This document shows, in pieces, positions 35,274 to 38,646 of a stretch of 40,795 nucleotides of DNA. The DNA lies in assembly GCA_902761975.1 (NCBI GenBank), contig CACWMG010000010.1, positions 1-40,795 on the forward strand, in the 5' to 3' direction. Positions within the stretch are counted from its first letter, which is position 1. Each line of letters begins with the position of its first letter. The stretch is from Candidatus Avelusimicrobium pecoris (GTDB lineage Bacteria > Elusimicrobiota > Elusimicrobia > Elusimicrobiales > Elusimicrobiaceae). The translations under genes were made by a program, and so were the position numbers. Under the pieces are notes generated by a model that ran no database searches, was not told where the DNA came from, and saw only the letters and a program-made list of their open reading frames with translations.

Positions 35274-36965
35274 ATGCGGGGCATTCTATTTTTTTTAATC
35301 GTGTCTATAGGGGTAGGGGGGACCTTGCCTGCAAAGGCCGCTTTTCCGTTTTCATTTCGCAAAGCGCAAATCAAAACCGATTATTCCCAAACGGTGTGGG
35401 ACCGTATGATGCAGGAGCAATCTATGTTGGAAATGCGCCGCGGCATGGGGGAAATGGCCTCGTCCAATTACCAAGCCGCGTCCAACAGTTTTGCCCGCGC
35501 GGTTATCAAAAACTCCAAGGACCCGCTCGGCTACCTTTTGCTAGGGGCCTCGCTTTATTGGGCGGGCAAGGTGGACGACGCCATTAGCGAATATAACGAG
35601 GCATTGCGCCTGGACCCCAAAAACCCCATGGCCTATCAGCTTTTAGGTATTGCCGCCGGGTGGAAAGGTAACGTGCAGGAAGCGCAAGACTATTTTTTAA
35701 AAGCCAATTATTTTGACCCTAACAAGGCCGACACCCACATGAACCTCGGCTCCACGTACGCCGTCCAGCGTAATTGGGATAAAGCCCTGGAACACTTCCG
35801 CCAAGCGGTGGACCTCGCTCCGCGCGAAGCTCTCTACCACTACCAATTGGGTACGCTGTATGAAGAGCTTGGGCGCGACGTACTGGCCGAAGAATCTTTT
35901 AAAAAGGCCTTACACTATTTTTCCGGATACGAAGACGCCATGCTTAGCTTAGGTGCCTTGTACGAAAAACTAAGCCGCCCCCAAGAGGCCCTTAAATACT
36001 ACAAGCGTGCCGTTAAAACCAAACCCGGCGATTTTGTAGCGCGGCTTCGCTACGGGTTTTTGCTCGTTAAACAAGGGCAACTGGCCCAAGCGCGCGCGGT
36101 CATAGAGCAAGCTTTTTCCATTACGCGCTTTAAGCAGGATGGGCTTGCGCTTAATGCCGTGTACCGCGCTAGCGGACACACGGCCCAAGCGTTTGAACAG
36201 CAAATCAACCAGTTTAAGGAAAGCTTACAGCAAGTGCCCGTGGGCAAAGCTATTAACGTGGAAGTTACGTTGGAATATCAGCCCGCCGTTCCTTCTCAGC
36301 CACAGCCTACGCCGCGTGCCAGTACATTTGAACAGGCCTATGAACGCCTGCAAGCCGGTGGCCCTTTGCAAGCAAGTTCCGCACCGCAAACGCAAACGTT
36401 TAAGCGCATTTTTAGCTTCCCGGGTGGAAATGAAAAATCCCGCCAAGAACAAATTGACAATTTAATTAACGGCTTAAAACAAGCGGTTGCCAGCGCGCCG
36501 GAAAATTATAACGTAAGTCTTTCTATGCAAGGGCGCACGTTGGATTATAATTCGCCTTCTGCCCTGTCGCAAAACCGCACTACGCCGCCCAAGGCCGTTT
36601 ATGACCCGCGCATTGTCGGCAACGATATGGGGCTATGGGTAATGGGCCGCACGTGGATACAGTTTGTGGACGAGGCTCAAGAGGATTTAGCTGAGTACAA
36701 AAAATGTCCTACAGATAATACATGCGATTTACTCAAAGGCTTGGCCGCCCTGGCCCGCGGTAACGGACAGCGCGCGTTAGAGCGTTTTTCCAGTGCCGCC
36801 AAAACCGCTCCGCAGGACCCACTTGCCCAACTGGGCTTAGGCACGGCCGCCGTCATTAATGGCGAGGATGAAAACGCAATTGCTTTTTATAAAAATGCGC
36901 TTGGTTTAGACGAAAAAAACAAAATAGCCGCTAAAAATTTAAAAGTACTTACGGACGACAAATGA
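35274..36965 (+). CDS. Exported TPR-repeat protein
   Basis: This 563-residue protein has a signal peptide (about 1-22, cleavage near AKA) and a series of TPR repeats at about residues 60-270: NYQAASNSFARAVIKN, DDAISEYNEALRLDPKNP, WDKALEHFRQAVDLAP, LAEESFKKALHYF and PQEALKYYKRAVKTKPGD. A less structured part with Gln/Pro-rich spacers follows (about 335-440), then a last TPR region (about 470-560). The role is probably a scaffold in envelope protein complexes; the partner is unknown. It overlaps ksgA by 4 bases (ATGA), so the two are co-translated, which need not mean a shared function. Confidence 0.75.
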   Translation: MRGILFFLIVSIGVGGTLPAKAAFPFSFRKAQIKTDYSQTVWDRMMQEQSMLEMRRGMGEMASSNYQAASNSFARAVIKNSKDPLGYLLLGASLYWAGKVDDAISEYNEALRLDPKNPMAYQLLGIAAGWKGNVQEAQDYFLKANYFDPNKADTHMNLGSTYAVQRNWDKALEHFRQAVDLAPREALYHYQLGTLYEELGRDVLAEESFKKALHYFSGYEDAMLSLGALYEKLSRPQEALKYYKRAVKTKPGDFVARLRYGFLLVKQGQLAQARAVIEQAFSITRFKQDGLALNAVYRASGHTAQAFEQQINQFKESLQQVPVGKAINVEVTLEYQPAVPSQPQPTPRASTFEQAYERLQAGGPLQASSAPQTQTFKRIFSFPGGNEKSRQEQIDNLINGLKQAVASAPENYNVSLSMQGRTLDYNSPSALSQNRTTPPKAVYDPRIVGNDMGLWVMGRTWIQFVDEAQEDLAEYKKCPTDNTCDLLKGLAALARGNGQRALERFSSAAKTAPQDPLAQLGLGTAAVINGEDENAIAFYKNALGLDEKNKIAAKNLKVLTDDK

Positions 36966-37732
36966 CCGGACGCCACATCCAAAAATACGGACAGCACTTT
37001 TTAATTTCCCCGCGTGTCATTAACGAAATTGTGGACGCGGCCGAGGTGCTTAAAGCCCCGCAACTGGTGGAAATCGGCCCCGGCCAAGGCGCGCTGACGC
37101 AGGAACTTGTGGCGTGCGGTCGCACGGGTTTTACCGTTGTAGAAATTGACCCGGAAATGGTGCAATTTTTACGTGCCCATTTGTCGCCAACGGCCCAAGT
37201 AACTATTTTACAAGCCAACTTTTTAGCGTTTGATTTAGCCACGCTCCCAGCTGTTCCCACGCAATTTGTAAGTAATTTGCCGTATATTGATGCCGCTGAA
37301 ATTTTAGACAAAGTCCTTTCCTACCCGTATTTTCAAACGGCGGTGTTTATGTTTCAAAAAGAACAAGCGCAAAAAATTACCGCCAAACCCGGTGAAAAAG
37401 GTTATGGGGCCCTGTCGGTGCTTAGCCAGTTGCGCGCGCGTATTTCGCTTATTTGTAACGTCGGCAAAGGGAGTTTTAACCCGCCACCTAAGGTGGATTC
37501 GCGCGTGTTGGCATTTGAAAAAATTTCGGCTCCCGCCAATTTCTCTGCTGTAAAGCGTGTGGTGCAAGCCAGTTTTTTGCACCGTCGTAAAACGTTGTTA
37601 AACGCGCTTTTGCTCTCAGGCTACGAACGCGAAAAAATCCTAGCCGCCTTACACGCGCAAAATTTACCGCATACCGTCCGCCCCGAACAACTGACCCCCG
37701 CCCAATTTGTGCAAATGGTCGGCCAATTATAA
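36962..37732 (+). CDS. rsmA: 16S rRNA dimethyladenosine transferase RsmA (KsgA)
   Basis: This 256-residue protein matches RsmA in length and motifs: QKYGQHFLISP at the start, the SAM-binding loop VEIGPGQGALT (about 39-49), EIDPEMV, the catalytic loop SNLPYIDAAEIL (about 103-114), then FQKEQAQKI, YGALSVLSQ and FNPPPKVDS. It dimethylates two adjacent adenines near the 3' end of 16S rRNA. It follows the TPR gene with ATGA overlap. It is a housekeeping gene and the only one in the window with such a clear role. Confidence 0.93.
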   Translation: MTGRHIQKYGQHFLISPRVINEIVDAAEVLKAPQLVEIGPGQGALTQELVACGRTGFTVVEIDPEMVQFLRAHLSPTAQVTILQANFLAFDLATLPAVPTQFVSNLPYIDAAEILDKVLSYPYFQTAVFMFQKEQAQKITAKPGEKGYGALSVLSQLRARISLICNVGKGSFNPPPKVDSRVLAFEKISAPANFSAVKRVVQASFLHRRKTLLNALLLSGYEREKILAALHAQNLPHTVRPEQLTPAQFVQMVGQL

Positions 37733-37743
37733 TTTGCTATACT
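37728..37743 (+). promoter_or_regulatory. -10 boxes for the structured RNA and pilin
   Basis: A perfect TATAAT (37728-37733) in the stop region of rsmA, and a second -10 match TATACT at 37738-37743. The -35 region (about 37706-37711, TTTGTG) is weak. Transcription would start near 37740 or 37750. Confidence 0.4.
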
Positions 37744-37986
37744 ATAGATACTTTAATAGTAAGGAGGAATTGTAAGCCCATACATATAGTTTAATTATTT
37801 TTGGCATTGCGTATTTGTGCGCAACTCACTTGCAAAAGTGCAGTATCTAACCAAAAATAGCCGCTAGTAGGTACCAATCGGGTGGCCACCCGAGCGGTAC
37901 TGAATGTTTCCTGCCCCTAACGGGGCAGGACTACGGCTGTTATATTGGGTTTGTAGATACTGGCCCGGTATAACAGCCGTTTTTTG
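37740..37986 (+). ncRNA. Candidate structured RNA or leader with intrinsic terminator, upstream of pilin
   Basis: Five helices are visible in this non-coding segment: TTGCG/CGCAA (37807-37824); CACTT/AAGTG with a GCAA (GNRA) tetraloop (37827-37840); GTACC/GGTAC enclosing the palindrome CGGGTGGCCACCCG (37871-37900); CCTGCCCC/GGGGCAGG (37910-37929); and a 12-bp terminator stem. Identical TAGATAC segments at 37745 and 37954 could each pair with GTATCTA (37843-37849), so two folds compete. The second of these lies in the terminator loop. This is the pattern of a switch or a trans-acting RNA. No class I know fits. Confidence 0.6.
37933..37986 (+). terminator. Intrinsic terminator upstream of the pilin gene
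   Basis: ACGGCTGTTATA (37933-37944) pairs perfectly with TATAACAGCCGT (37969-37980) across a 24-base loop, followed by TTTTTTG. It lies 40 bases before the pilin start, so the pilin mRNA needs read-through or a separate promoter. Confidence 0.85.
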
Positions 37987-38025: not shown

Positions 38026-38646
38026 ATGAATAAAGCAAATGTAGTAGCAAAAGTGTATGGGGCATGTGCGAGCATGACCATGGCCTGTAAAGGACATCTT
38101 GATGCATGTCGGGTTAGCACCCGACCTATGAAGGTGACGGACAATTTAACGGGCTTTACGCTGATTGAGCTCTTAATGGTTGTTCTCATAATTGGAATCT
38201 TGGTTGCAGTAGCACTGCCGCAATATCAATTGGCAGTGGCTAAATCACGCGTGGCCACTATATTACCGATTATTAAAAGTATAGGAACTGCTGAGGAAGT
38301 TTATTATTTGGCAAATGGTGATTATGCCTTAAATTTCTCTGATTTGGACGTCAATCTTCCCGCAGATTGTACGAGAGTAGAGGATAATACAACGAGTATG
38401 AAACTAAAATGTGGCGCAGACTTTATTTTTGATATTCCCTCTGATAAGGTAGGAATCTTTGTAAATTACTGTCCGGGAAATAACACGAATTTTAGCACAT
38501 GTTCAAATACGCGTTCTTTCCAAATTCAAAAATTTTTTGAACATATTGAAGAAACTGCGCGTGCCAGTTCTCAGGGAAAATGGATTTGTCAGCCAATACC
38601 TGGTTCTGCTTTTGGCCAAAAAGTTTGTAGTTCTTTATCGTTCTGA
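38026..38646 (+). CDS. Type IV pilin (GFTLIEL family) with very long leader
   Basis: This 206-residue protein contains TGFTLIELLMVVLIIG: the PilD prepilin peptidase site after Gly43, Glu at +5, and a hydrophobic polymerisation helix. The mature protein (164 residues) has AVAKSR and Cys pairs in the C-terminal half (DC, KC, YC, TC, IC, VC). The leader of 43 residues is far longer than the usual 6-30 and contains three Cys. The start at 38026 is supported by AAAGGA. An in-frame ATG at 38128 would give a leader of normal length (9 residues), but it has no ribosome-binding site and directly follows a hairpin. This is a classical type IV pilin or type II secretion pseudopilin, a different class from the Flp-type subunits in the Tad locus. 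Confidence 0.85.
   Translation: MNKANVVAKVYGACASMTMACKGHLDACRVSTRPMKVTDNLTGFTLIELLMVVLIIGILVAVALPQYQLAVAKSRVATILPIIKSIGTAEEVYYLANGDYALNFSDLDVNLPADCTRVEDNTTSMKLKCGADFIFDIPSDKVGIFVNYCPGNNTNFSTCSNTRSFQIQKFFEHIEETARASSQGKWICQPIPGSAFGQKVCSSLSF
38108..38125 (+). promoter_or_regulatory. Hairpin in the pilin leader just before the internal ATG
   Basis: GTCGGGT (38108-38114) pairs with ACCCGAC (38119-38125) around a TAGC loop, ending 2 bases before the in-frame ATG at 38128. The TAGC loop also occurs in the leader hairpin near 31404. Confidence 0.6.

What the first reader, a model, noticed from the sequence alone, without database searches (positions are those of the whole stretch)
37740..37986. Undescribed structured RNA with mutually exclusive pairings and a terminator ahead of a pilin gene
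Two identical TAGATAC segments (37745-37751 and 37954-37960) can pair with a single GTATCTA (37843-37849). The second one is in the loop of a perfect 12-bp intrinsic terminator, so the pairing would form a pseudoknot or alter terminator folding. Between them lie four more helices, one with a GCAA tetraloop. This is consistent with a riboswitch or attenuator controlling pilin expression, or with a free-standing small RNA.
Basis: partly seen in the sequence, partly recalled or inferred. Interest (0 to 1): 0.65.

Follow-up and report, generated by a model that had tools for sequence, protein, structure and literature searches.

The report
Multicopy RNA switch with private barcodes
The stretch in front of a pilin gene is one of dozens of copies of an apparently undescribed folding RNA that looks like an on/off switch for the next gene; every copy keeps the same fold but carries its own private pairing code, which would matter because it hints at RNAs that recognise their own kind.

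Summary
Window 37740-37986 is one of 42 diverged copies in this genome of a leader RNA with no Rfam match. The class also occurs in related gut Elusimicrobiota, with up to about 50 copies per genome. In this genome 38 of 42 copies lie 41-382 nt before a pilin motif; elsewhere it also precedes other surface and accessory genes. The pairing between the terminator loop (37954-37962) and 37841-37849 exists in 42 of 42 copies, with a different sequence in each. The other TAGATAC (37745) lies at the promoter and its pairing is chance. Best reading: a transcription attenuator. The loop helix plus P4 (37856-37863 with 37934-37941) forms an antiterminator around a P5-P6 three-way junction, and is exclusive with P1 plus the terminator. 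Two features are unusual. The loop helix behaves as a locus-specific barcode: it mostly differs between loci whose RNAs are otherwise at least 85% identical, and in one near-identical locus pair both strands were replaced together. The P5 apex carries a self-complementary hexamer (20 different ones overall), which suggests homodimerisation by a kissing loop. The attenuator is well supported, dimerisation moderately, and trans self-recognition is inference. Nothing here shows transcription.

The parts
37738..37743 (+). -10-like promoter box TATACT; transcript start expected a few bases downstream
   Evidence: Consensus only; similar boxes lie upstream of P1 in most own copies. No transcript data.
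37795..37860 (+). P1: 37795-37804 with 37851-37860 (TTATTTTTGG with CCAAAAATAG), enclosing P2 and P3; its 3' end overlaps the P4 5' strand
   Evidence: Fold; P1 found in the own copies, 10-11 pairs in most, as few as 6 in two.
37808..37823 (+). P2 hairpin
   Evidence: Fold.
37827..37840 (+). P3 hairpin with GCAA tetraloop
   Evidence: Fold; hairpin kept, sequence variable.
37841..37849 (+). Barcode helix, 5' strand (CAGTATCTA)
   Evidence: 7 or more contiguous Watson-Crick pairs with the terminator loop in 42 of 42 own copies, mean 9.6, against 44 of 1722 cross-copy.
37856..37863 (+). P4 5' strand (AATAGCCG), antiterminator inner stem
   Evidence: Covariation; 138 of 158 copies with 7 or more pairs.
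37870..37901 (+). P5 hairpin; apex carries the palindrome TGGCCA (37883-37888)
   Evidence: Covariation; palindrome excess at P5 apices.
37902..37909 (+). Conserved junction GAATGTTT (consensus GARTGTTT) between P5 and P6
   Evidence: Alignments.
37909..37930 (+). P6 hairpin
   Evidence: Covariation.
37934..37941 (+). CGGCTGTT: P4 3' strand and at the same time part of the terminator 5' arm
37933..37985 (+). Intrinsic terminator: stem 37933-37951 with 37962-37980, then T tract
   Evidence: Fold; 6 or more pairs in 155 of 158 copies.
37954..37962 (+). Barcode helix, 3' strand (TAGATACTG) in the terminator loop
38026..38646 (+). Downstream gene: type IV pilin-like protein with N-terminal methylation motif
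   Evidence: PF07963 22.2 bits against a cut-off of 21.2.

Best explanation
It is a cis-acting leader RNA, one copy of an undescribed multicopy class, that most likely works as a transcription attenuator. While it is being made, the 9-10 bp barcode helix plus P4 forms first and encloses the P5-P6 three-way junction (antiterminator, gene on). Once the 3' arm has been transcribed, CGGCTGTT can leave P4 for the terminator while P1 re-forms (gene off). What biases the choice is not known. The conserved three-way junction and the self-complementary P5 loop point to a bound partner, most likely a second copy of the same RNA through a kissing loop. Status of the steps: the helices and their conservation are shown by comparison; the switch is shown by sequence overlap and predicted energies only; dimerisation is inferred from covariation of the palindrome; any effect on expression is inferred.
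For: 42 copies in the genome with a clear score gap, 38 of 42 with an N_methyl pilin motif 41-382 nt downstream on the same strand. Covariation of P4, P5 and P6: 14 of 19 pairs changed on both sides, 0 of 500 shuffles as high on any measure. P4 and terminator share one strand: P4 has 7 or more pairs in 138 of 158 copies and the terminator 6 or more in 155 of 158; where the shared strand reads CTATT, P4 carries the matching T in 9 of 9 copies. Predicted folding up to the end of the barcode contains both P4 and the barcode helix in 40 of 42 own, 83 of 84 other genus, 23 of 25 f21 and 87 of 90 g14 copies; folding of the longer transcript turns to the terminator in 25 of 42, 79 of 84, 23 of 25 and 69 of 90. 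Six-nt palindromes at P5 apices: 106 of 133 copies, 32 of 44 unique apices, shuffled mean 6.0, maximum 14; second genus 26 of 42 unique against 6.0; second family 6 of 11 against 1.5; the P6 apex is at chance, P3 and P2 too.
Against: No transcript, probing or reporter data. In 17 of 42 own copies the predicted full fold lacks the terminator pairing, so the two states are close in energy or the prediction fails there. 13 of 42 own copies lack a perfect 6-nt palindrome, several keeping only its central 4 nt. The P4 3' strand hardly varies, so P4 is supported mainly by one-sided changes plus a few two-sided ones. Shuffle controls ignore relatedness. The terminator could simply end a free small RNA.
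Confidence: 0.72

Rival explanations
1. The barcode helix and the terminator coexist: the terminator loop kisses the strand between P3 and P1, so the RNA is one static pseudoknotted fold, perhaps a free-standing small RNA ending at the terminator, rather than a switch.
For: The inner terminator pairs close a loop made almost wholly of the barcode strand, and inner-stem pairing is better within than between copies (9.1 against 7.0; that script had anchor errors in some non-own copies). A promoter-like box and a strong terminator delimit a discrete RNA.
Against: P4 would then be unexplained: it covaries, was chosen unprompted by RNAalifold and shares a strand with the terminator. The RNA sits on the same strand just before a gene.
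Confidence: 0.2
2. Metabolite riboswitch: the conserved three-way junction (GARTGTTT and CTACGG) binds a small ligand; the palindrome and barcode are incidental.
For: Conserved junction nucleotides and a terminator/antiterminator platform; variable surface genes downstream.
Against: Downstream genes share no pathway. A ligand does not explain a locus-specific helix or palindromes confined to the P5 apex.
Confidence: 0.3
3. The barcode varies only because any helix will do there, so it drifts by neutral compensation and carries no specificity.
For: All 42 own barcode 10-mers differ, but their pairwise similarities look random; cross-copy complementarity is at chance (2.6% against 2.1% shuffled), so no avoidance of cross-talk is visible.
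Against: Pairs of RNAs 85% or more identical at unrelated loci have barcodes with mean identity 0.57 (87 of 139 at 0.6 or less), while homologous loci keep the barcode (29 of 33 pairs; 21 of 25 after removing repeats). L029/L032: flanks 95-99% identical, core 98%, barcode 40% on both strands.
Confidence: 0.3
4. A mobile or selfish repeat that spreads by inserting before genes and has no regulatory role.
For: High and very uneven copy number between genomes of one genus (1 to about 50) and near-identical cores at unrelated loci.
Against: Fixed orientation and short distance to the next gene, compensatory changes typical of RNA helices, a conserved junction, terminator and promoter-like boxes; no exact pattern match in viral contigs.
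Confidence: 0.06

Closest known systems
Transcription-attenuating leaders and riboswitches (terminator/antiterminator type, e.g. T-box leaders; recalled)
   Same: Alternative antiterminator and terminator sharing one strand, directly upstream of a gene
   Different: No Rfam family matches; the antiterminator outer stem has a different sequence at nearly every locus; palindromic apical loop; up to about 50 copies per genome
OLE, GOLLD and ROOL homo-oligomeric RNAs (PMC12286853: passages and section 8 read)
   Same: Symmetric kissing loops whose palindromes change together (that paper: GGCC to GAUC or AGCU in OLE) taken as evidence for pairing between two molecules; ROOL was found in rumen
   Different: Those RNAs are longer and do not carry a terminator switch ahead of varied genes as here; no dimer has been observed for this RNA; 20 different hexamers here
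Plasmid replication leaders with RNAI and pseudoknot (IncI/IncK; PMC10724649, passages seen)
   Same: Loop pairing in a leader decides expression, and small sequence changes create new compatibility groups
   Different: There a separate antisense RNA and translation control; here the two complementary strands are within one RNA, chromosomal copies are many, and the switch is a terminator
HIV-1 dimerisation initiation site (recalled)
   Same: Hairpin loop with a self-complementary hexamer; some loops here have the same 2+6+1 layout (AA-UUGCAA-A)
   Different: Unrelated RNA; layout varies between copies; the window loop (TGGCCA) has no flanking purines

Membership tests
Any Rfam 15 family | Match at or above the family's gathering score | tested here: not met
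   Window: none at gathering and none near it with relaxed filters; 13 diverse loci: only rRNA, in L018.
Transcription attenuator | Intrinsic terminator before the gene | tested here: met
   (155 of 158 copies).
Transcription attenuator | Conserved antiterminator exclusive with the terminator | tested here: met
Transcription attenuator | Read-through changes in response to a signal | not testable with these tools
   No expression data.
Riboswitch | Binding of a defined small ligand | not testable with these tools
   Only a conserved junction is seen.
Homodimeric RNA (OLE/GOLLD-like kissing loop) | Palindromic loop with symmetric covariation | tested here: met
   exceptions in 13 of 42 own copies.
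Homodimeric RNA (OLE/GOLLD-like kissing loop) | Dimer observed | not testable with these tools
   Needs native gels or mass photometry.

The most novel reading that the evidence does not exclude
A bacterial system of self-addressed leader RNAs: each locus carries a private barcode helix and a palindromic dimer loop, so transcripts of one gene recognise their own siblings in trans and set terminator versus antiterminator gene by gene, letting one genome run dozens of pilin and surface genes as independent RNA-level feedback or bistable switches.
Probability: 0.28. Interest if true: 0.93.

Novelty: new variant of a known kind. Interest (0 to 1): 0.8.

Why it matters
A regulatory RNA class with about 50 copies in genomes of 1.1-1.7 Mb, each with its own helix sequence, would be among the most densely used leader RNAs known (my judgement). 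It gives a simple handle on how these little-studied gut and rumen bacteria could control a very large pilin repertoire (85 N_methyl matches in this 1.24 Mb assembly). If the palindrome and the barcode mean what they suggest, it would be a natural case of RNA self versus non-self recognition in gene regulation, testable in vitro with short transcripts.

Tried and rejected
Pairing of 37843-37849 with the first TAGATAC: rejected as chance. Hairpin sequestering the Shine-Dalgarno sequence after the terminator: clear by eye in some copies, weak overall (6 or more bp in 23 of 124 against 7.8% cross-copy), so not part of the common mechanism. The P5 palindrome pairing elsewhere in the same RNA: not above swapped copies (20 of 132 against mean 18.7). 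Barcode matching the downstream gene or upstream region: none. Avoidance of cross-talk between barcodes: none visible. Strict pilin association: holds in the own genome, but only 4 of 22 readable first ORFs in f21 and 50 of 79 in the sister genus score as pilins; two g14 ORFs counted as non-pilin there (L269, L297) look like pilins by eye. The weak hits G173 and G292 have no recognisable core or barcode and were left out of further counts; G300 was not inspected.

Rows dropped and corrections: the first anchor for the terminator 5' strand was wrong in many copies, some own ones included (it picked CGGC inside P6). The P6 control and the helix numbers are therefore superseded; the P5 results do not depend on that anchor, and the own-genome barcode count was the same with the corrected one. 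Copies dropped for lack of an anchor: one (L107), five full-length copies plus one reverse-strand match, one (L259). G314 (weak, f21) was read but not carried into the f21 counts. L124 lacks 5' sequence (contig end) and counts as a miss. Short reverse-strand matches and both L013 matches were not used. Six of 96 sister-genus copies failed the barcode test. Four of them are in G104 and could be assembly chimeras or real changes: their strands matched no other copy beyond 7 bp. The 33 homologous-flank pairs include four loci fetched twice and four repeats of the same pairs; I count 25 independent pairs, 21 of them unchanged. The 139 unrelated-flank pairs were not cleaned in the same way, and the flank threshold (0.68) was set when the script was written, without a sensitivity check.

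Full report
What is in the window. The RNA lies between a KsgA/RrnaAD-like methyltransferase gene (36962-37732) and a pilin-like gene (38026-38646). The described elements are at the stated places. Folding is much stronger than in dinucleotide shuffles (z -5.8, z -7.75). Rfam gives nothing.

A multicopy family. A DNA search of the own genome (1.24 Mb, 59 contigs, 85.5% complete) found diverged relatives, each in front of a pilin-like ORF. A covariance model from seven of them found 42 copies with E below 1e-3 and then a gap to 0.42. An N_methyl search of the same genome gives 85 matches, 81 over the cut-off. 38 of the 42 RNAs have such a match 41-382 nt downstream on the same strand. Of the other four, two are within 200 nt of a contig end and two have none in 1500 and 722 nt.

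Distribution. With model R1, 57 of 66 genomes of the genus match at E 0.01 or better. With a three-helix model from 91 sequences, 94 of 340 genomes of the phylum match: two genera of the own family (g1, g14) and, in another family assigned only to the same phylum, genera g78, g82, g85 and g86. The weak hits G173 and G292 looked spurious on reading; G300 was not read. Copy number is very uneven: many genomes have 1-7, others about 20-52. A 99% complete genome (G112) has 43 matches and G104 has 52 (such totals can include a few short reverse-strand matches, as one search shows). An exact degenerate pattern over 84,980 named genomes matched 48 stretches: 46 titled Elusimicrobium, Elusimicrobiaceae, Elusimicrobiales or Elusimicrobia, mostly rumen or gut assemblies where a source is named, and two titled only as uncultured bacterium; no match in viral contigs. 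The RNA is not tied to pilins everywhere: first readable ORFs were pilins in 100 of 123 copies of the genus, 50 of 79 in g14 and 4 of 22 in f21. Others include glycosyltransferases (GT2, GT8, GT9), polysaccharide pyruvyl transferase, LicD, an outer-membrane barrel, a DNA methylase, an HsdR-like protein, a metallo-beta-lactamase fold protein and lipoprotein-like ORFs (by eye).

Structure. RNAalifold on the 42 own copies, unprompted, gave a three-way junction of P4, P5 and P6 (the rows had been aligned with a model that held P4 and P5). Counting these pairs gives 96.8% paired cells and 14 of 19 pairs changed on both sides; no shuffle of 500 is as high on any measure, and slid partners pair in 25-52% of cells. 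The shuffles do not correct for relatedness. P1 (consensus CTGTTTTTGG with CCAAAAACAG) encloses hairpins P2 and P3.

The barcode helix. The strand just before the P1 3' strand pairs with the terminator loop. In 42 of 42 own copies there are 7 or more contiguous Watson-Crick pairs (mean 9.6), while strands from different copies average 4.35 and reach 7 in 44 of 1722 cases. With corrected anchors the counts are 42 of 42 own, 84 of 90 other copies of the genus and 25 of 26 in f21, then 90 of 96 in g14 and 34 of 34 further copies. All 42 own 10-mers differ, with pairwise similarity near random. The window's other TAGATAC shares this complementarity by chance.

Locus specificity. Among pairs of RNAs at least 85% identical outside the helix, pairs with homologous flanks mostly keep the helix (29 of 33; 21 of 25 after removing repeats), whereas pairs at unrelated loci mostly differ (87 of 139 at identity 0.6 or less, mean 0.57 with core mean 0.88; 12 of 139 are 0.9 or more). 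P3, also variable, is more conserved than the helix in the same bins. In L029 and L032, the same locus before an HsdR-like gene with flanks 95-99% identical, both strands of the helix, about 110 nt apart, were exchanged together while the rest stayed 98% identical. Slow neutral compensation does not explain this pair well (inference). It is a single case from two genome assemblies.

Mutual exclusion. CGGCTGTT is both the 3' strand of P4 and part of the 5' arm of the terminator. P4 reaches 7 contiguous pairs in 138 of 158 copies and the terminator 6 or more in 155 of 158. In nine copies the shared strand reads CTATT and P4 has the matching T; elsewhere T is there in 30 of the 144 paired copies (C-G 114, T-G 30). 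Folding each transcript only to the end of the barcode yields P4 and barcode together in 40 of 42, 83 of 84, 23 of 25 and 87 of 90 copies; folding to the T tract yields the terminator in 25 of 42, 79 of 84, 23 of 25 and 69 of 90 (only copies with a helix of 7 or more were folded, so the barcode part is partly built in). In the window the truncated fold contains both helices without constraint at -72.3 kcal/mol, and the full fold has the terminator at -88.6. The mechanism proposed is therefore an antiterminator made of barcode helix plus P4 competing with P1 plus terminator. Predicted energies are not kinetics.

The palindromic P5 loop. The P5 apex holds a 6-nt palindrome in 106 of 133 copies of the genus, 32 of 44 unique apices, against a mean of 6.0 (maximum 14) for shuffled and 5.1 (maximum 10) for half-swapped apices; P3 and P2 apices are at chance and so is P6 with corrected anchors (3 of 116 unique). 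Partly independent sets: f21 15 of 26, 6 of 11 unique, shuffled mean 1.5 with maximum 6; g14 65 of 93, 26 of 42 unique, shuffled mean 6.0 with maximum 14, P6 9 of 66 unique. In the pooled 226 copies 170 have one, of 20 kinds. In the own genome it is 29 of 42, and recurrent exceptions such as CTGATCCC keep a 4-nt palindrome. The middle bases of a hairpin apex cannot pair with each other, so symmetry kept through sequence change argues for pairing between two molecules. The same argument is made for OLE and GOLLD in PMC12286853 (section 8 read). The complement is not found elsewhere in the same RNA above chance.

Literature. Searches for Elusimicrobi with pilin, riboswitch with pilin, Elusimicrobi with structured-RNA terms, Elusimicrobium minutum with type IV pili and the lineage names listed nothing whose title or abstract describes this RNA; these searches cover open-licence PMC papers only. 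From PMC10724649 I saw passages on plasmid incompatibility set by RNA loops.

Verdict. A real, widespread RNA class in gut Elusimicrobiota with an attenuator architecture, and two uncommon features (locus-private antiterminator stem, self-complementary loop) that suggest self-recognition between transcripts. The first two claims rest on comparison; the last is an inference to be tested.

Noticed in passing
own genome; window 38152-38217 is one example: 85 N_methyl (type IV pilin) matches in a 1.24 Mb incomplete genome, 47 of them without this leader; what so many pilins do is unexplained.
   Followed up: partly
window 38086-38135; also L002, L005, L006, L007: The part of several pilin genes before GFTLIELL holds in-frame palindromic repeat DNA (e.g. 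GTCATCCTGAACTCGATTCAGGATC, GTCCCCCTTGTGGGGAAA), like palindromic elements inserted in a leader peptide that is cut off (resemblance to Rickettsia elements recalled, not tested).
   Followed up: no
window 37760-37775: A Shine-Dalgarno-like AGGAGG followed by TTG-TAA (a start-stop) lies between promoter and P1; L003 (GTG-TGA) and L074 (TTG-TAA) show the like. Possibly an old upstream ORF or a ribosome site.
   Followed up: no
L004, L056, L057, L075 just after the terminator: In some own copies the Shine-Dalgarno sequence of the pilin can pair with the bases after the T tract; weak over all copies.
   Followed up: partly
L279:1620-1765, L266:494-641, L275:371-516, L281:360-507 (G104): Four copies of one 52-copy genome have barcode strands that do not match each other or any other copy examined; assembly chimeras or functional exceptions.
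   Followed up: partly
L317, L311, L312, L324, L340, L341 and neighbours (g14): In the sister genus several copies precede small TPR-like proteins (KEFxxLIKKYP..YxxRAxLYxxxxxYxKAxxDY), a second paralogous gene family under this leader (by eye).
   Followed up: no
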